Shown here piece by piece: positions 53,263 to 64,000 of a DNA stretch of 64,000 nt. Source of the stretch: Shewanella metallivivens (GTDB lineage: Bacteria; Pseudomonadota; Gammaproteobacteria; Enterobacterales; Shewanellaceae); NCBI RefSeq assembly GCF_028750675.1, contig NZ_JAQQPZ010000004.1, positions 186,001 through 250,000 on the forward strand. Direction: 5' to 3'. The notes under the pieces were generated by a model. That model was not told the origin of the DNA and did not search any database. It saw nothing but the letters and a program-made list of their open reading frames with translations. The number at the start of each line of letters is the position of its first letter. Positions within the stretch are counted from its first letter, which is position 1. The translations under genes and the position numbers were made by a program.

Positions 53263-53385
53263 CGGTTGACGCTAAACCGCCATTTGCAACGTTATAAATG
53301 GTGTCTTTGGCTCCAAAACCTTTTAGCTTAAACCGTTATCAATACAATACTTAGTCGCTGCAACTGCAGCATTTTAGAGGTGATT

Positions 53386-54267
53386 ATGAAATTTTTGTCA
53401 AAATTAATTCAGGCAAGCGCGATGTTAACTATGATGGCAGTATCCGCCAGCGCTGTCAGTGCAACATTAACAACGACCGTGTTTAATCCACAAGAAAAGA
53501 GCATGTTCCCTGTTAGCTCAGTGTTAATTACAGGGCCAAAAGAAGCCATCTTAGTAGATGCTCAGTTTCAGCGTAATGACGCACAGGCTGTAGTTGAGCT
53601 GATAAAACAGTCAGGTAAAAAACTGACGACTATTTACATTAGTCATGGGGATCCAGATTATTATTTTGGACTTGATGTGATTACCGCAGCCTACCCCAAT
53701 GCCAAGGTGTTATCATCTGCCACAACCCAAGAATACATAAAGGCGACAATGGCGCCTAAAAAAGCCTACTGGGGGCCTATCCTTAAAGAAAATGCACCAC
53801 AAACACTGGTAGTGCCAGAAGTACTACAAGGCGACACCTTAACCGTTGATGGTGAACAGGTTAACGTTATTGGCCTTGAGGGGCACGATCCAAAACATAC
53901 TTTTGTTTGGATCCCTTCCAGTAAAACAATGCTTGGGGGCGTGGTGATTTTTAACAATATGCACGTTTTTTTAGCTGATAGTAAAACTCCAGAGTCGCGC
54001 CAAAATTGGTATAAAACCCTTGATGTTATTGAAAAGCTAAACCCTACAACGGTGATATCTGGGCATATGCTGGGCGACAAACCGTTGACCATTCAAGCGG
54101 TTAAATTCACCCGCCAGTACATTGAAGACTTTGAAACTGCAGCCAAATCGGCAGCAAATTCAGAGGAATTAATGGCCAAAATGAAAGCCATTTATCCAAA
54201 TATTGGCGGCGACAGCATATTGAGTTTAAGTGCAAAAGTGATCATGGGCGAAATGCCTTGGGGCTAA
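53386..54267 (+). CDS. Exported MBL-fold metallo-hydrolase
   Basis: 293-residue protein with a signal peptide (cleaved near SASA-VSA) and metallo-beta-lactamase fold. The usual HXHXDH metal motif is altered: the sequence reads SHGDPDYYFG, retaining the first His and the Asp but losing the second and last His. GHDPKHTF and SGHM further on keep other ligands. It may bind one metal or have a different activity; such HGDPDYYFG variants form a distinct subgroup. It is the third gene in the LysR-divergent set; a GAGGTGA ribosome site is present. Confidence 0.8.
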   Translation: MKFLSKLIQASAMLTMMAVSASAVSATLTTTVFNPQEKSMFPVSSVLITGPKEAILVDAQFQRNDAQAVVELIKQSGKKLTTIYISHGDPDYYFGLDVITAAYPNAKVLSSATTQEYIKATMAPKKAYWGPILKENAPQTLVVPEVLQGDTLTVDGEQVNVIGLEGHDPKHTFVWIPSSKTMLGGVVIFNNMHVFLADSKTPESRQNWYKTLDVIEKLNPTTVISGHMLGDKPLTIQAVKFTRQYIEDFETAAKSAANSEELMAKMKAIYPNIGGDSILSLSAKVIMGEMPWG

Positions 54268-57608: not shown

Positions 57609-58325
57609 CTATTGAGTATGTCGATATTCTTCTTCAATGCCATCAAGTAAGACTAAAAAGTCTAATAAATGCGCTCTCATTGCTTGCTCTGCACCAGCCT
57701 CATCGCCTGCAATCACAGCATCAATAATAGAATGATGCATGCCCGGGGGATGTATTTTATCAGTATCAGGTTGAAACTTACTGGCAATTGAACCCACTAA
57801 CTGAATCAATGACTTATCAATAGCGGTTAAAAAGCGGTTATTACACATATCTGCCAGCAAATAATGAATTTTGCTTCTTAACATGACAGTTTCAGGGTAT
57901 TCCAATGTCAGGCTTTCATTGGCATTCGCCTCGAGTAACAATTTAGCATACTCAGGAGTACAGTGTTTTGCCGCAAGACCTGCAACAATGGGTTCAATAT
58001 GTAAGCGCGCTTGGCAGATCTCATTAAATGACATTTTACCTAAAAAGAACAAATCGTTGCAGTCACTACTTAACCGATCAAATGTCATTTCTTTTACAAA
58101 AGCACCGCCAGTAGCGCCTTGCTTAATGACCACAAGTCCGCGGGCTTCTAACGATTTTATCGCTTCTCTAACAACCGTGCGACTCACGGCAAATTTTTCG
58201 ATCAACTCGCGCTCCGAGGGCAGTTTATCACCCGCGGAAAATCGCCCTGAGAAAATAGCTTCTCTGAGCTGATTAAAAACTTCATCAGATGCCTTTATCT
58301 GCTTGATTGGTTTGAAGTTATTCAA
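57609..58325 (-). CDS. FadR-type GntR regulator (FCD domain)
   Basis: 238-residue GntR-family regulator, FadR/FCD subfamily. N-terminal wHTH: GDKLPSERELIEKFAVSRTV followed by VREAIKSLEARGLV. C-terminal FCD domain with candidate metal-binding histidines in KIHYLLAD, MHHSIIDA and RAHLLDF; such domains sense carboxylic acids. TTG start with TAAGGACG upstream. It is divergent from the flavoprotein/cytochrome/porin/esterase cluster, with a 25-bp palindrome between, so it is its probable regulator. The effector would be a small carboxylate. Confidence 0.85.
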   Translation of the reverse strand: MNNFKPIKQIKASDEVFNQLREAIFSGRFSAGDKLPSERELIEKFAVSRTVVREAIKSLEARGLVVIKQGATGGAFVKEMTFDRLSSDCNDLFFLGKMSFNEICQARLHIEPIVAGLAAKHCTPEYAKLLLEANANESLTLEYPETVMLRSKIHYLLADMCNNRFLTAIDKSLIQLVGSIASKFQPDTDKIHPPGMHHSIIDAVIAGDEAGAEQAMRAHLLDFLVLLDGIEEEYRHTQ

Positions 58326-58785
58326 AATACGTCCTTACGCTACTTTATCGTCCAATTGTAACACAGCGTCACCACCAAAGAGTACTACTGTTAAACCTAA
58401 AGCAGTAAATATAATTCCCCTTTAAAAAACAATAGATTAAATAACCTCGCAACCCTCTTTACCTCATCAAAAACTCCTGCTAGGAGCCCTGCTGTTTCAC
58501 AAATAGCTTATTTAAGCAGCAAGTCACAAAATAATTAATTTTGCGGATGGCTGCAAAAATTTAACAACCAACGCTTATTATGAAACGTTATATGTCATAC
58601 ATTTAACGTATCAGAAGTGGAGAGTAAAAATTAGTCATGACTAATAACAAAGGCTTTATCTACTTTTTGAACAAACCTACTTAAGTCAGTAGAAAACAGT
58701 CGTTCTAAGCGGTTATGACCGGGTTCTATATCAAAGTCTTGATGACGGATCTGCCTCGAGCCGTGAGGGGTAAAGGAGTTTTAAA
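58326..58785. other. Divergent promoter region of the respiratory cluster
   Basis: 460 bases between the FadR-type gene and the flavoprotein gene. It contains the 25-bp inverted repeat at 58585-58609 and a GTAAAGGAG ribosome site at the right end. No gene seen. Confidence 0.4.
58585..58609. promoter_or_regulatory. 25-bp palindromic operator
   Basis: ACGTTATATGT and ACATTTAACGT flank a 3-base centre (CAT), pairing at 10 of 11 positions. The inner TGT-N3-ACA matches the short spacing typical of FCD/FadR-subfamily sites. It is about 177 bases before the flavoprotein start and 260 bases from the regulator start. Confidence 0.65.
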
Positions 58786-60462
58786 ATGAGTAAAAATGAT
58801 TCAAACAAGTCGAATGAAATCGACCAATATACCCGCAATGTCCTGCAAAATGGTCTTTCACGACGCAGTTTTTTAACTCGTGCCGCTATGGGTACTGGCG
58901 CCGTCGCTTTTACAGGTCTTACTGGCAGCATGGCCACAGCCTCAACAGATGATTGCGTTAAAACGGCCAAGAGCTCAGATGGCGGTGCAACGCTCGAATT
59001 CATGCCAAAACCGAAACCGATTTCTGACAGAGATATTGTTTCAACTCAAACATTTGATGTCGTTGTCGTTGGTGCAGGTGCATCTGGTGTACCCGCTGCG
59101 TTATCTGCTGCTGAAAACGGTGCCAAAGTAGCGGTATTGCAAAAGCAAGCCATTGTGGTTTCGCAAGGTAATACAGGATCTGGCATCGATTTAGCCAACA
59201 GTGACAAAGCCGCAGTAGAAGCCATGGTAAACCGCTTAATGGGCGACAGTGCCCACCGCTGTCACCCTGAACTCGTGAGAGAATGGGCATACAACTCTGG
59301 TGAAGCCGTTTCATGGGTGATCGACCGCGCTAAAAAAGGTGGCGCACAAATCGTTGACCAAGGCACTAAAGTGCAACATGGCATTCATGGTGTTACCGAA
59401 CATAAACTTAACTTTGTTACCTCATATTGTGGACCTAAGCCTTACACCACAGGTGACGGCATGCGTGCTTTAGCTAAAGTGGCAGAAAAAGCTGGGGTTA
59501 AATTCTTCTTCAACATGCCAGCTCAGCAACTTGTTCAAGATGACTCAGGCAAAGTGATTGGGGTTATCGCCCAAGACCGTGACGGTAAATACCACAAATA
59601 CATGGCCAAAAAAGGCGTGATTTTGTCTTCAGGTGATTACCAAAACAACGAAGCAATGTGTAACTTCTTCATCCCTGATTTGAAAAACTTTGAACGTAAA
59701 CAAATGGATCGTACCGGTGACGGTTTCTCAATGGCATATTGGGCAGGCGGCGTTATCGAACCAATTGGCCACACCAAAATGCTCCATGACTTTGATGCAG
59801 GCCCTGCGTCAATGTGTGATATGCCGTTCCTTGCCGTCAACCGCAAAGGTGAGCGCTTCGTCAATGAAACCGTTGCTATGTCACTGATGAACAACTATCT
59901 ACGTGATGAAGAAAATGCCGGTCACTACTCGCAAGTCTTCGACGCGAACTACATGGAACAAGCAGCGAACTGGCCAGGCAAACTCTACTCGCCTGAGCAG
60001 ATGAAAATCTACATGCCAGAAGATCCATCACCAAAGATTGGCGTTTACGAGTCTCAAATTAATACCTACTCAGCCAATACCTTAGAAGAGCTCGCAGTCA
60101 AACTAGAATGCGACCCTAAAACCTTCGTTGCCAATGTGAAGCGCTACAACGAGCTATGCAAAACCGGCAAAGATGATGATTTTGGTAAGCCTTCAGCAAA
60201 AATGCTGCCAGTGGTAAAAGCACCTTTTTATGGCATTCATCGCCGCATGCGCATCTCAACCTTGTGTTCAGGCATGCTCGTGGACAAAAACCATCAAGCA
60301 CTGGATGCAGACGGCAACAAAATTGGCGGTTTATTTGTTATCGGTAACCTTGGCGGTGGCTTCTATGGCGGTGTCGACTACCCACTCACCGTATTCGGTT
60401 TGTCATTAGGACGTTGCTACACATTTGGCTACTTAGCAGGTAAGTACGTCGCCAAACTGTAA
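58786..60462 (+). CDS. Tat-exported FAD-dependent reductase (fumarate reductase/flavocytochrome c-type flavoprotein)
   Basis: 558-residue periplasmic flavoprotein. It has a twin-arginine signal (SRRSFL, then a hydrophobic stretch), an FAD-binding Rossmann motif (VVVVGAGASGVPAALSA) and the FAD_binding_2 fold of the fumarate reductase/urocanate reductase family. No heme or FMN-binding domain is attached; the tetraheme cytochrome 67 bases downstream should deliver the electrons. NRKGERFVNET is conserved, but the C-terminal region reads GVDYPLTVFGLSLGRC rather than the NRLGGNA of fumarate reductase, and no HTMGG motif is seen. The substrate is therefore probably not fumarate. AAAGGAG precedes the start. 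Confidence 0.88.
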   Translation: MSKNDSNKSNEIDQYTRNVLQNGLSRRSFLTRAAMGTGAVAFTGLTGSMATASTDDCVKTAKSSDGGATLEFMPKPKPISDRDIVSTQTFDVVVVGAGASGVPAALSAAENGAKVAVLQKQAIVVSQGNTGSGIDLANSDKAAVEAMVNRLMGDSAHRCHPELVREWAYNSGEAVSWVIDRAKKGGAQIVDQGTKVQHGIHGVTEHKLNFVTSYCGPKPYTTGDGMRALAKVAEKAGVKFFFNMPAQQLVQDDSGKVIGVIAQDRDGKYHKYMAKKGVILSSGDYQNNEAMCNFFIPDLKNFERKQMDRTGDGFSMAYWAGGVIEPIGHTKMLHDFDAGPASMCDMPFLAVNRKGERFVNETVAMSLMNNYLRDEENAGHYSQVFDANYMEQAANWPGKLYSPEQMKIYMPEDPSPKIGVYESQINTYSANTLEELAVKLECDPKTFVANVKRYNELCKTGKDDDFGKPSAKMLPVVKAPFYGIHRRMRISTLCSGMLVDKNHQALDADGNKIGGLFVIGNLGGGFYGGVDYPLTVFGLSLGRCYTFGYLAGKYVAKL

Positions 60463-60529
60463 CCCAAAAAGACAAGTAAATGGATGCCAGACCTTTGGCA
60501 CCTTTCACACAGAATTATGGAATAACACA

Positions 60530-60886
60530 ATGAAAAAATTAACACTGCGCAACATCATGCTTTGTCTTGCATTGAGCTTTTTCGCAAGCAGTGCAATGGC
60601 TGATAAAACCACCTTACTCGACCAAACTCATGCAGCTAAAGGACTTAAATGTGCCAGCTGCCATGGTAACGCCGAACAACGCGAAGCGGTCACTATGACC
60701 AAATGCATCAAATGTCATAACACCGAAAAGTTGGCTAAAAAAACCAAAGATGTAAAACCAACAAACCCACATGAAAACCGCCACTTTGGCACCGAAACCG
60801 ACTGTGCAAAATGCCACAACGTACACCAGAAGTCTGAAAACTACTGCGGTAGCTGTCACCTTCGTTTTGACTTTGTGGTCCCTTAA
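60530..60886 (+). CDS. Periplasmic tetraheme cytochrome c
   Basis: 118-residue exported cytochrome with a signal peptide (cleaved after SAMA) and four CXXCH heme sites: CASCH, CIKCH, CAKCH and CGSCH. Size and heme spacing resemble the small tetraheme cytochrome and the N-terminal heme domain of Shewanella flavocytochrome c. It is likely the electron donor of the upstream flavoprotein, taking electrons from CymA-type quinol dehydrogenases, as with fumarate reductase Fcc3. Separate flavoprotein and cytochrome subunits resemble the methacrylate reductase arrangement in Geobacter-type bacteria. Confidence 0.9.
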   Translation: MKKLTLRNIMLCLALSFFASSAMADKTTLLDQTHAAKGLKCASCHGNAEQREAVTMTKCIKCHNTEKLAKKTKDVKPTNPHENRHFGTETDCAKCHNVHQKSENYCGSCHLRFDFVVP

Positions 60887-60942
60887 AATAGTAAGGCCCC
60901 CGATATCTCGACCATAAAAAGTCAATACGAAACAGGATGAGA

Positions 60943-62199
60943 ATGATGAATATTAAAACTAAATTATTACCGCTAGTCGTAGCATGTCTAGCCGCAAGCC
61001 CAGCCTTTGCCGCTGAGCCAATGGCAAACATATTTAATGATGCAACCTTGAAAGGTCAATTCCAACTTTTTGATTTTCAACGTAACTTTGATGGTGATAG
61101 CACAGATCGCCACGACACCTCGTTCGGTGGTTTATTCTACCTGCGTTCAGGTGAAGCTAATGGCATCAGTTTTGGCGGCTCATTTGCGTCAGCAAACCCA
61201 ATATGGGAGTCAAACAACGACGGGCTTTACGGCCTTGTAGGTGGTGGCGCACCTGGCTCAGTTGTCGAGCGTACCGCTGTTAACCGTTTACAAGAGTACT
61301 TTGTCAGCGGCAACTGGTACGACACACAAATCGTGGTCGGTGCACAAGAGTTACGTACCCCAATGATGAACCCGTTCCCATTACGTGCTATTCCGTTCAC
61401 GTATCGTGGTGCCAGTGTTAAAAATACCTCTATAGAAAATTTAGCGATATCAGCACTATACATCACAGACTACATGGGTTGGACTGACGAAGAGTTTAAC
61501 AACGTATCAAGCGGGATCCGCAGTGAGTTTGCACGTAAAGGTGTCATTGTCGATGTAGAAGACAACCCAATCTATGCGCTAGGTTTAGACTACAACCTGC
61601 CAATCGAAGCGATAAACGCTAAGACCAGTTTGTGGTACTACAGCATGGAAGATGTGTATAACCAGTACCATGTTAAGTTAAACCTTAGCGGCGAAATGGG
61701 TGCAGCTAACTGGTATTTCAATCCATCTTACCTAAAGCAAGACTCAACTGGTGCACTTAGTCAAACCGAAGCGCAATTTGACACATACCAAGCGGGTTTC
61801 CACTTAGGGATGAAATGGAACGGATTTGATGCAACAGTAAAATATGTTACCACCGGTGACGGCGACGTTGTGGCACCATTTGGCGATGACAAAGTCATCA
61901 TCCAACAAGTGGTTCAATCAGCACGCGCTAACGAAGATGGCTACGGCTTACAACTTGCTTATCAATTTGCACCAGATTCTGCATTAAGTGGCGTTAGCAC
62001 TTATGTTAACTGGGCAAACTATGAAATTGATGGCGACTCAAGTAAAGACATCGACGAAACCGACTTTTCAGTGGTGTACGATCTAGCCAAATATGTTGAC
62101 GGTTTAAGCGTACGCGCACGTCATGCCATTGTGAACTACTCAACAGGTGACGACTTAACCGATACGCGTTTCTACGTTTACTACAAGTTCGCAATTTAA
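60943..62199 (+). CDS. Outer-membrane porin (OprD-like)
   Basis: About 418-residue outer-membrane barrel with a signal peptide (cleaved after PAFA-AEP) and a terminal YYKFAI strand. ELRTPMMNPFPLRAIPFTYRG resembles loop 3-region sequences of OprD-type substrate-specific porins, which admit carboxylates or aromatic acids in Pseudomonas. The start is taken at 60943 or 60946, since the ATG at 60937 touches its ribosome site AGGATGAG. It sits between the cytochrome and the esterase genes, so it probably brings in the substrate. Confidence 0.82.
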   Translation: MMNIKTKLLPLVVACLAASPAFAAEPMANIFNDATLKGQFQLFDFQRNFDGDSTDRHDTSFGGLFYLRSGEANGISFGGSFASANPIWESNNDGLYGLVGGGAPGSVVERTAVNRLQEYFVSGNWYDTQIVVGAQELRTPMMNPFPLRAIPFTYRGASVKNTSIENLAISALYITDYMGWTDEEFNNVSSGIRSEFARKGVIVDVEDNPIYALGLDYNLPIEAINAKTSLWYYSMEDVYNQYHVKLNLSGEMGAANWYFNPSYLKQDSTGALSQTEAQFDTYQAGFHLGMKWNGFDATVKYVTTGDGDVVAPFGDDKVIIQQVVQSARANEDGYGLQLAYQFAPDSALSGVSTYVNWANYEIDGDSSKDIDETDFSVVYDLAKYVDGLSVRARHAIVNYSTGDDLTDTRFYVYYKFAI

Positions 62200-62235
62200 T
62201 CTTCGTAACAAAAGCTTACGCAGCTTTCATTAAGT

Positions 62236-62266
62236 AAAGGGCCACCGCTCCCGGCCCTTTTACTTT
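62236..62266 (+). terminator. Weak terminator or attenuator between porin and esterase
   Basis: AAAGGGCC pairs with GGCCCTTT around a 9-nt loop, with a broken T-rich tail (TACTTTTT). It may reduce read-through into the esterase gene. Confidence 0.5.
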
Positions 62267-62300
62267 TTGATTGACTCTCAATTCGCAAAAAGGATTTCCC

Positions 62301-64000
62301 GTGAAACTTAATACAATAGCCGTCTCTATTGCCATGACGCTTGCGCTAACAGGCTGTGATAGTGACGAAAAAGACACAAGCCTACCGATTTTAACCGCCG
62401 CCCAACCTGCCACATTAATAAACTGCACATCGCTAGTTGATGCTTTTAACTTTGACGACACCGAAATCACCTCAGCGGTGATGGTTGACGCCGGCGAGGT
62501 TGACTACGATGGCCGTGGTGTCATGTTTAAATCACCCGCTCACTGTGTGCTAACCGGTAAAATGGAACAGCGTTTAGGTAAAGGTTTGCAAGGTAGTGAA
62601 ACCCAAGAATATGCCATCGGCTTTGAAATGCGCATGCCAACCGATTGGAATGGCCGCTTTCTCTACCAAGCAAATGGTGGCTTAGACGGCCGAGTGAACA
62701 AAGCCTTAGGTCGTTTTTTAATAACCGATGACTATGACGCTACCGCACTTAACAAAGGTTTTGCAGTAATAAGCTCCGATGCTGGACACGAAGGGTATGG
62801 CCAACAATATTTTGGACTCGATCATCAAGCACGCATTAATTATGGCTACGGTGCTGTTGAAAAACTCACCCCAATGGCAAAAGCACTAATATCAGACGCT
62901 TATGGCAAACAACCCGATCGTTCATACTTTGCAGGTTGCTCTAACGGTGGCCGCCACACTATGGTTGCTGCAACACGTTTTCCTGAAATGTATGACGGGT
63001 TTTTGGTTGGCGATCCAGGAAATGACTTGCCTCAAGCCGCTGTTGCACAATTATATGGTGTACAGCAATTTGCCAACTTAATCCCTGCTAATACACCTTT
63101 AACCACTGCCGATGAAATCAATGCCGCCATAGTCAGCACCGTCACCGCGCAAGAATATACATTATTAGCTAATAGTGTCAGCGAGCAATGTGACGCTTTA
63201 GATGGCGCAGCAGACGGGATGATTAACGACCTAGTTGGCTGTCAGCTTGCCTTTGATATTGACCGTGACGTGCCACTTTGTACCGCTGAGCGTGATGGAA
63301 CCTGTTTAACTGCCGAGCAAAAACAAACGCTAGGTAATATTATGACCGGGGCACAAACCTCAGCTGGCGCAGCACTTTACACAAGCTTCCCTTACGATGT
63401 GGGCATAGGTGCCAGTGGTTGGGCAAGTTGGGAAATGTCAGCCGCCTTTAGCCGCGATGCAGGCACTGTAGCAACGGTATTTTCAACGCCGCCAGTCGAA
63501 TTCAATGACTACAACACCTTTGCTGATGCAGGGTTAATTGAAGCCTACAACTACGCTGTGAACTTGAACTTAGATGAAGCCCAAGCCGCAATCAATGCGA
63601 CCACCAGTGAGTTCCCTGAATCATCAATGTCATTTATGGCCTTAGGTGGTGAAACGGACTATGACGTATTACGTGAACGTGGCGCCAAAATGATCTTAGT
63701 GCATGGTACTGCCGACCCAGTATTCTCTGTGCAAAATACCATTGACTGGTACAAATCTGTTGATGAAGCTAATGCGGGTAATGCTGATGAATTTGCCAAG
63801 CTATACCTTATTCCAGGCATGAATCACTGCGGTAATGGCCCAGCAACCGATCAAGTCAATACGATTTTAGATGACATCGTGGCTTGGGTAGAAACAGGCA
63901 CCGCACCAGAAGCCATCACCGCCAATGCGCGCGAAGCCAACACTGAGCTACCAGAAGATTGGGCTAAAGACCGCTCTCGCCCATTGTGTCCATTCCCACA
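62301..64000 (+). CDS. Lipoprotein tannase/feruloyl esterase (runs off window end)
   Basis: At least 566 residues; the frame is open to the edge. GTG start at 62301 with AGGA six bases upstream. The signal ends in lipobox LTGC, so the enzyme is an outer-membrane lipoprotein. It has the tannase-family alpha/beta-hydrolase features: nucleophile in GCSNGGRH (Ser about residue 214, flanked by Cys), acid in HGTADPVFS and the His in MNHCGNGP. The family hydrolyses esters of hydroxycinnamic or gallic acids. Downstream of the reductase, cytochrome and porin genes, it suggests that an ester-bound unsaturated acid feeds that system. Confidence 0.88.
   Translation, partial: MKLNTIAVSIAMTLALTGCDSDEKDTSLPILTAAQPATLINCTSLVDAFNFDDTEITSAVMVDAGEVDYDGRGVMFKSPAHCVLTGKMEQRLGKGLQGSETQEYAIGFEMRMPTDWNGRFLYQANGGLDGRVNKALGRFLITDDYDATALNKGFAVISSDAGHEGYGQQYFGLDHQARINYGYGAVEKLTPMAKALISDAYGKQPDRSYFAGCSNGGRHTMVAATRFPEMYDGFLVGDPGNDLPQAAVAQLYGVQQFANLIPANTPLTTADEINAAIVSTVTAQEYTLLANSVSEQCDALDGAADGMINDLVGCQLAFDIDRDVPLCTAERDGTCLTAEQKQTLGNIMTGAQTSAGAALYTSFPYDVGIGASGWASWEMSAAFSRDAGTVATVFSTPPVEFNDYNTFADAGLIEAYNYAVNLNLDEAQAAINATTSEFPESSMSFMALGGETDYDVLRERGAKMILVHGTADPVFSVQNTIDWYKSVDEANAGNADEFAKLYLIPGMNHCGNGPATDQVNTILDDIVAWVETGTAPEAITANAREANTELPEDWAKDRSRPLCPFP

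What the first reader, a model, noticed from the sequence alone, without database searches (positions are those of the whole stretch)
57609..64000. Putative ester-cleaving, unsaturated-acid-respiring cluster: FadR regulator, flavoprotein reductase, tetraheme cytochrome, porin, feruloyl esterase
Visible in sequence: a Tat flavoprotein of fumarate-reductase type without heme domain, a separate four-CXXCH cytochrome, an OprD-like porin and a lipoprotein tannase/feruloyl esterase, all on the same strand with short gaps, divergent from an FCD regulator. Known precedent: Shewanella fumarate and urocanate reductases and Geobacter methacrylate reductase couple such a flavoprotein to multiheme cytochromes. 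Inference: an ester of an unsaturated acid (for example a hydroxycinnamate) is cleaved at the surface, imported and used as a terminal electron acceptor. Linking an esterase directly to a respiratory reductase would be a distinctive unit.
Basis: partly seen in the sequence, partly recalled or inferred. Interest (0 to 1): 0.8.

Follow-up and report, generated by a model that had tools for sequence, protein, structure and literature searches.

The report
Ester-fed aromatic respiration gene cluster
This Shewanella stretch holds an esterase-family gene, a pore gene, and a flavin enzyme gene followed by a four-heme protein gene, a set predicted to free an aromatic compound from its ester and likely to use it for breathing without oxygen, and the flavin enzyme lacks three key residues of the known fumarate-type reductases.

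Summary
In detail: FCD regulator, Tat flavoprotein, four-CXXCH cytochrome, OprD-type porin and tannase-family lipoprotein lie as described; the esterase ends 70 bases past the window. The esterase-reductase link is more than chance: among 60 genomes of the genus (this one included) the tannase family occurs in 9, all among the 17 with the flavoprotein, and within 4 kb of it in 7 of 9. A conserved operator lies upstream of the flavoprotein, in some genomes also where the regulator is kilobases away. In Bacteroidota a homologous flavoprotein stands near carboxylesterases of another family and a rhamnosidase; in seven other loci beside XylR_N 'aromatic' activators, six with a sigma54-type promoter. 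An aromatic substrate tied to an ester is thus supported, though not measured. The proposed chemistry is not: the two arginines and the histidine that handle the carboxylate in fumarate, urocanate and methacrylate reductases are missing. Phenol- or carbonyl-activated reduction is my inference; carboxylates bound in another way are not excluded. Surface cleavage is unsupported. The flavoprotein belongs to a family, uncharacterised as far as I found, in Shewanella, Geomonas, Geothrix, Bacteroidota and Coriobacteriia. Substrate untested.

The parts
57609..58325 (-). FCD/GntR-family transcription regulator (TTG start)
   Evidence: PF00392 76 bits, PF07729 55 bits; none of the 25 NCBIfam families shown reached its cut-off; a homolog of 50% identity or more lies in the 20-kb locus of 13 of 17 genomes, this one included
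58590..58604 (.). Predicted FCD operator ATATGTCATACATTT (core ATGT-N3-ACAT) between regulator and flavoprotein
   Evidence: Found by footprinting; one exact copy in this genome; in five of the eight genomes scanned exactly one exact copy, each about 120-185 bases upstream of the flavoprotein; 0.03 exact copies expected per genome
58786..60462 (+). Tat-exported FAD flavoprotein, predicted reductase; Met365, Ser491/Thr492 and Asp531-Tyr532-Pro533 stand where Frd/UrdA have Arg, His and Arg
   Evidence: model m1ab9f11309cb mean pLDDT 88, fold of UrdA/Fcc3/cyclohexanone dehydrogenase/KSTD
60530..60886 (+). Tetraheme cytochrome c (four CXXCH), predicted periplasmic
   Evidence: PF14537 62 bits; next gene after the flavoprotein in 17 of 17 genomes, this one included
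60937..62199 (+). OprD-family outer-membrane porin
   Evidence: PF03573 68 bits; a homolog of 40% identity or more in the 20-kb locus of 13 of 17 genomes
62271..64000 (+). Tannase/feruloyl esterase-family (MHETase-like) lipoprotein; runs to about 64070, past the window end
   Evidence: PF07519; catalytic motifs GCSNGGR, HGTADPVF, GMNHC and lipobox LTGC-D; only PF07519 match of the genome

Best explanation
The cluster, whose flavoprotein gene is preceded by a conserved palindrome that is the predicted operator of its FCD regulator, is predicted to cut an aromatic (phenolic, plant-type) ester in the periplasm and likely to reduce the freed aromatic moiety as a respiratory electron acceptor. Shown by sequence: a regulator of the FCD class, an OprD-type porin, an esterase lipoprotein with the Ser-Asp-His motifs of its family, a Tat flavoprotein modelled in the flavocytochrome c / ketosteroid dehydrogenase fold, and a small tetraheme cytochrome. 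Inferred steps: the ester enters through the porin; the esterase splits it; the acid product (or a close relative) is the signal that lifts the FCD regulator; menaquinol electrons pass by the inner-membrane quinol dehydrogenase (CymA in Shewanella, recalled) to the tetraheme cytochrome, then to FAD; FAD hydride reduces the aromatic side chain. Because the Arg/His/Arg set that handles the carboxylate is gone, activation is likely through a phenol or carbonyl oxygen (quinone-methide or enone-like, as in ketosteroid, vinylphenol or benzyl-ether reductions) and not by the 2-enoate route of fumarate reductase. The exact substrate is not determined.
For: Co-occurrence: tannase family in 9 of 60 genus genomes (this one + 59), one match each, all 9 inside the 17 with the flavoprotein (Fisher p 1.6e-6, not corrected for kinship), 7 of 9 within 4 kb. 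Different gene orders keep the same genes; in G037 regulator-porin-esterase sit on another contig than flavoprotein-cytochrome, and a site stands at both (1 and 2 mismatches). Operator exact and single in 5 of 8 genomes scanned (of the 17), each upstream of the flavoprotein, also where the regulator is kilobases off. Aromatic: XylR_N sigma54 activator next to the flavoprotein in seven loci (L024, L033, L053, L055, L057, L082, L083), with a GG-N10-GC promoter in 6 of 7 against 0 of 12 loci without it; Phenol_MetA_deg family protein at L072. Ester: PF00135 carboxylesterases in 4 of 5 Bacteroidota loci, rhamnosidase in 5 of 5. Respiratory: tetraheme partner in 17 of 17, of an apparently membrane-anchored type in other phyla. 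Active site: the Arg402 column is Met in 27 of 27 aligned, and Arg in 0 of 19 family rows against 5 of 5 Frd-type rows.
Against: 8 of the 17 genomes with the flavoprotein have no tannase gene, so the ester is not obligatory. The esterase is in pieces in L021 (one stop), L038, L039 and L040 and a remnant in L047. At two mismatches the operator is no commoner than its reversed control in most genomes, so only exact or near-exact sites count; G015 and G013 have no site near the flavoprotein (G013 has XylR instead). The looser sigma54 pattern worked where a stricter one found nothing. 'Aromatic' rests on a domain name, not on a ligand. The KSTD-like Tyr-Pro is one column off in the alignment. Direction (reduction, not dehydrogenation) is inferred from hosts and heme partners.
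Confidence: 0.5

Rival explanations
1. One reading: the esterase frees a hydroxycinnamate (ferulate, caffeate, p-coumarate) and the flavoprotein reduces its 2-enoate double bond by a fumarate-reductase-type mechanism.
For: Tannase/feruloyl family; FCD regulators often sense organic acids (recalled); fold closest to UrdA and Fcc3, tied with others. Conserved Arg486, Arg489, Lys331, His329 and His334 could bind a carboxylate in another way.
Against: Arg402, His504 and Arg544 of Fcc3 (Arg411, His520, Arg560 of UrdA; both arginines shown to matter there by mutation, passages) are not found in the aligned family. The Mrd paper likewise points to conserved Arg/His/Arg.
Confidence: 0.22
2. The flavoprotein works the other way, as a periplasmic dehydrogenase of a cyclic ketone or a similar product of the ester (like ketosteroid or cyclohexanone dehydrogenase), giving its electrons to the cytochrome.
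Against: Most relatives named are anaerobes or metal-respirers (recalled); no NCBIfam dehydrogenase cut-off is reached among the 25 families shown.
Confidence: 0.13
3. Two independent units share a neighbourhood: an ester/porin/regulator catabolic unit and a flavoprotein/cytochrome respiratory unit, with no common substrate.
For: The modules are separable (G037; 8 of 17 genomes without tannase; XylR loci without the FCD unit).
Against: Complete nesting of tannase genomes in flavoprotein genomes (p 1.6e-6), 7 of 9 within 4 kb, sites at both modules when apart, separate esterase pairing in Bacteroidota.
Confidence: 0.12

Closest known systems
Shewanella flavocytochrome c3 fumarate reductase and urocanate reductase UrdA (TIGR01813)
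   Different: 22-25% identity over the structural alignment, below the TIGR01813 cut-off, Arg402/His504/Arg544 replaced, heme part on a separate gene, Tat export
Geobacter sulfurreducens AM-1 methacrylate reductase Mrd/Mcc (PMC4427408; parts 1-2 of 5 and passages read)
   Same: Split layout: Tat flavoprotein followed by a Sec tetraheme cytochrome in one operon
   Different: The paper reports Arg353, His461 and Arg501 conserved in Mrd; the present family lacks that set. Acts on (meth)acrylate; no esterase or porin in the parts read
Vinyl phenol reductase VprA (NF053717)
   Same: Best-scoring NCBIfam model for the flavoprotein; phenolic alkene substrate
   Different: 147 bits against a cut-off of 600; no cytochrome partner known to me (recalled)
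Eggerthella lenta benzyl ether reductases Cber (Elen_0616) and Ber (PMC11887054, PMC9734109; passages read)
   Same: Cber is a flavin-dependent enzyme that opens the catechin C-ring; both act on plant phenolics. An E. lenta-like genome (G374) has a 57% homolog of the window flavoprotein
   Different: Cber could not be pinned to a gene; homologs in the region estimated for it are 27-30% identical. No esterase link in the passages read
Cardiac glycoside reductase Cgr2 (PMC5953540; passages read)
   Same: Flavoprotein reductase that lacks most fumarate- and urocanate-reductase active-site residues
   Different: Cgr2 depends on Fe-S cluster(s) and reduces the digoxin lactone (passages); the cysteines of the window protein were not examined
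MHETase / tannase-feruloyl esterase family (PF07519)
   Same: Catalytic Ser-Asp-His motifs with neighbouring Cys pair
   Different: 268 bits to the closest solved MHETase; the carboxylate-binding Arg of MHETase (recalled as Arg411) is not seen in the alignment

Membership tests
Flavocytochrome c / fumarate-urocanate reductase (TIGR01813) | Score over the curated cut-off | tested here: not met
   141.3 against 285.45 bits; four other genes of the genome pass it
Flavocytochrome c / fumarate-urocanate reductase (TIGR01813) | Catalytic Arg (402 in Fcc3, 411 in UrdA) and carboxylate-binding His and Arg | tested here: not met
   Met365, Ser491/Thr492, Asp531-Tyr532-Pro533 in their places; need for them from passages of PMC7921117
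Flavocytochrome c / fumarate-urocanate reductase (TIGR01813) | FAD + clamp domain fold | tested here: met
Flavocytochrome c / fumarate-urocanate reductase (TIGR01813) | Multiheme cytochrome partner | tested here: met
   Four-CXXCH gene next to it in this genome, cytochrome homolog next in 17 of 17
Vinyl phenol reductase VprA | NF053717 cut-off | tested here: not met
   146.7 against 600 bits
3-ketosteroid / cyclohexanone dehydrogenase | NCBIfam equivalog cut-offs | tested here: not met
   best 125.3 of 789 bits among the 25 of 57 families shown
3-ketosteroid / cyclohexanone dehydrogenase | Fold | tested here: met
3-ketosteroid / cyclohexanone dehydrogenase | C-terminal catalytic Tyr (487 in KSTD1, recalled) | tested here: inconclusive
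   Tyr532-Pro533 lies one column from the KSTD Tyr-Pro
Benzyl ether reductase (Ber/Cber) | Close sequence relation to Cber | tested here: inconclusive
   Elen_0616 not identified; regional candidates 27-30%
Benzyl ether reductase (Ber/Cber) | Reductive cleavage of a benzyl ether | not testable with these tools
   needs enzyme assay
Tannase and feruloyl esterase (PF07519) | Curated cut-off and Ser-Asp-His motifs | tested here: met
   397.8 bits for the gene; motifs in the window's gene and in 16 of 21 listed pieces, the other 5 being fragments
MHETase | Arg that binds the terephthalate carboxylate (recalled) | tested here: inconclusive
   no Arg at that place in the one pairwise alignment, which has gaps nearby
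FCD/GntR regulator | GntR HTH plus FCD domain over cut-off | tested here: met
FCD/GntR regulator | Binding to a palindromic operator upstream of target genes | not testable with these tools
   a conserved palindrome was found; binding needs an assay

The most novel reading that the evidence does not exclude
A widespread, uncharacterised family of periplasmic respiratory flavoprotein reductases breathes plant polyphenols that are not 2-enoic acids (for example benzyl ethers, stilbenes or vinylphenols), and in several phyla it is wired to its own supply line: a dedicated porin and an esterase (or rhamnosidase plus carboxylesterase) that release the acceptor from esterified plant material, so that ester cleavage feeds anaerobic respiration directly.
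Probability: 0.3. Interest if true: 0.78.

Novelty: new variant of a known kind. Interest (0 to 1): 0.58.

Why it matters
If right, it adds a non-acid class of organic electron acceptors to metal-respiring bacteria, explains why some Shewanella keep a lone tannase-family esterase, and gives a handle (one exact operator, one flavoprotein) for testing polyphenol respiration both in sediments and, through the roughly 50-60% identical proteins of Coriobacteriia, in the gut.

Tried and rejected
Fumarate/urocanate/methacrylate-type mechanism: rejected as the default. Equating the flavoprotein with Mrd: rejected. The downstream TonB receptor (L002:9424-11523) as part of the unit: left out, because its ortholog lies beside the cluster only in this genome of 17; but distant receptor genes (25-28% identity) lie on the far side of the regulator in L022 and L026 and similar ones (23-25%) in L041 and L103, so a TonB route is not excluded. 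No terminator-like site was found between esterase and receptor, in a scan that found fewer sites than its shuffles. The metallo-beta-lactamase gene of the window (53380-54267) as a counterpart of the Bacteroidota one: no BLAST match at 1e-3. XylR at L075: rejected, no XylR_N domain. NrfH/NapC naming of the anchored tetrahemes: not supported by Pfam; 'anchored' is read by eye from a hydrophobic N-terminus. Stricter sigma54 pattern: no hit in any of the 19 loci tried; the looser one gave 6 of 7 and 0 of 12. First structure model (27 close sequences, pLDDT 66) was dropped for the second (53 sequences, pLDDT 88). A ketosteroid dehydrogenase family scan of 185 genomes gave only sub-cut-off sequences (0 of 185 over it); six of these served as the KSTD rows. 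Pinning Cber by gene order failed. PHROGs: no match. Literature searches: no listed title or abstract dealt with this cluster; only the top rows were listed and the library holds open-licence papers. Works I recall (respiratory reductases of gut bacteria; Shewanella woodyi acrylate reductase) were not seen.
Full report
WHAT IS THERE. The regulator (57609-58325, minus strand) is a GntR/FCD protein. The flavoprotein (58786-60462) carries a twin-arginine signal (SRRSFL), one FAD_binding_2 domain and no CXXCH. The cytochrome (60530-60886) has four CXXCH motifs. The porin (60937-62199) is of the OprD family. The esterase starts at 62271 and ends about 70 bases past the window. It has the lipobox LTGC followed by Asp and the three catalytic motifs of its family. 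It is the only PF07519 match in the genome. Its best solved relatives are MHETases (268 bits); other ester hydrolases and feruloyl esterases score 98 bits or less.

DO THEY BELONG TOGETHER. In 99 genomes (this one and 98 relatives) the flavoprotein (E up to 1e-100) occurs in 17, all of the genus, which is 17 of the 60 genus genomes searched; one of them (G055) is broken. In 17 of 17 the tetraheme cytochrome is the next gene. A regulator of 50% identity or more and a porin of 40% or more lie in the same 20-kb locus in 13 of 17 each, the esterase in 7 of 17. The tannase family occurs in 9 of the 60 genomes, one match each, and all 9 are among the 17 (Fisher p 1.6e-6, genomes treated as independent, kinship not corrected); 7 of 9 lie within 4 kb of the flavoprotein. 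8 of the 17 have no tannase gene. The order differs between species: regulator | flavoprotein-cytochrome-porin-esterase as here, or regulator | porin-esterase-flavoprotein-cytochrome (L030, L031). Genome G037 keeps regulator, porin and esterase on a different contig. G013 has a lone esterase about 320 kb from its flavoprotein. In an overlapping set of 23 named Shewanella and Ferrimonas loci, regulator and porin are in 21 each, an esterase piece of 300 aa or more in 10, the cytochrome in 23. The esterase is interrupted or in pieces in L021, L038, L039 and L040 and a remnant in L047, which reads as secondary loss.

A PREDICTED OPERATOR. Footprinting of the upstream regions of 16 regulators gave a palindrome, AAATGT-N3-ACATTT: the top dyad score was 61.6 (6 of 16 regions), against at most 41.1 in 20 single-base shuffles, which were scored over two of the four word lengths only. 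In this genome the site ATATGTCATACATTT lies at 58590-58604 and has one exact copy. I scanned eight of the 17 genomes: five have an exact copy, one each, and each lies about 120-185 bases upstream of the flavoprotein, including a genome where the regulator is kilobases away (G012) and one where the flavoprotein stands behind the esterase (G042). In the loci of all 17, the exact site is upstream of the flavoprotein in 9. A one-mismatch variant stands between regulator and porin in G042, G045 and G015. In G049, whose esterase is transcribed the other way, a two-mismatch site lies just upstream of the esterase. In G037 the best site (one mismatch) is at the regulator-porin-esterase module and one of its ten two-mismatch sites is 171 bases upstream of the distant flavoprotein. 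G013 and G015 have none near the flavoprotein. At two mismatches the number of sites is like that of the reversed control in most genomes, so I give weight to exact and near-exact ones. The expected number of exact copies is 0.03 per genome. Binding is not shown.

WHAT KIND OF SUBSTRATE. Two lines outside this layout point to an aromatic one linked to an ester. First, seven loci have, next to the flavoprotein, a sigma54 activator with the XylR_N 'activator of aromatic catabolism' domain: L024 and L033 in the genus (2 of 17), L053, L055, L057, L082 and L083 in Desulfuromonas, Desulfosediminicola, two Geomonas and a Desulfuromonadaceae genome. Six of these seven have a GG-N10-GC promoter upstream of the flavoprotein, against 0 of 12 loci without XylR_N (a stricter pattern found none in any). 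Second, the five Bacteroidota loci carry an alpha-L-rhamnosidase in 5 of 5, a metallo-beta-lactamase-fold protein in 5 of 5 and type B carboxylesterases (PF00135, another family than PF07519) in 4 of 5 (Pfam was run on part of them, the rest assigned by BLAST). Shewanella fodinae, whose tannase is elsewhere, has a PF00135 gene on the other strand about 2 kb upstream of its flavoprotein (L069). So esterases of two families have come to stand near this flavoprotein. A Phenol_MetA_deg family protein stands at L072 and porins at the two Geothrix/Holophagaceae loci checked.

HOW IT LIKELY WORKS. Inference: ester in through the porin, cleavage in the periplasm, electrons from menaquinol through the tetraheme cytochrome to FAD, hydride to the aromatic side chain. 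Several relatives outside Shewanella have instead a tetraheme protein with a hydrophobic N-terminus (five Bacteroidota loci, L070, L071, L074, L078, L079, L096), as a quinol-linked donor would. Coriobacteriia genomes gave up to 62 matches to the flavoprotein each (G284, E up to 1e-20, some genes counted in pieces), and of the 18 loci of that group only L100 has a four-CXXCH gene directly after it. In E. lenta flavin-dependent Cber opens the benzyl ether of catechin, and Ber metabolises pinoresinol (passages). I could not tie the window protein to either: the genome I take for E. lenta has a 57% homolog elsewhere, and candidates in the region estimated for Cber are 27-30% identical.

VERDICT. 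It is a new variant of a known kind (flavoprotein plus multiheme respiratory reductase) with an uncharacterised active site. The substrate remains to be measured.

Noticed in passing
L002:9424-11523 (window equivalent about 64423-66522): TonB-dependent receptor directly downstream on the same strand; its ortholog is beside the cluster only in this genome of the 17, but distant receptor genes (25-28%) lie near the regulator in L022 and L026.
   Followed up: partly
L035 (G055): Flavoprotein gene broken into three pieces next to a cytochrome gene; a decaying copy.
   Followed up: no
L077, L080, L081, L102, L113: Bacteroidota loci with rhamnosidase, metallo-beta-lactamase-fold protein, carboxylesterases (4 of 5), the flavoprotein and a tetraheme protein with a hydrophobic N-terminus; looks like a phenolic glycoside/ester unit.
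   Followed up: partly
L024, L033, L053, L055, L057, L082, L083: XylR_N sigma54 activators beside the same flavoprotein in place of the FCD regulator.
   Followed up: yes
L180 (G374 2770055-2771653): 57% homolog in an Eggerthella lenta-like genome with no CXXCH gene beside it and a divergent 537-aa ORF; function not known to me.
   Followed up: partly
window 53380-54267: Metallo-beta-lactamase-fold protein with a signal-like N-terminus, of unknown role, about 3.3 kb from the regulator gene; not related by BLAST to the Bacteroidota one.
   Followed up: partly
L002:12129-12644: Short REP-associated-transposase-like ORF (by eye, no family scan) downstream of the TonB receptor.
   Followed up: no
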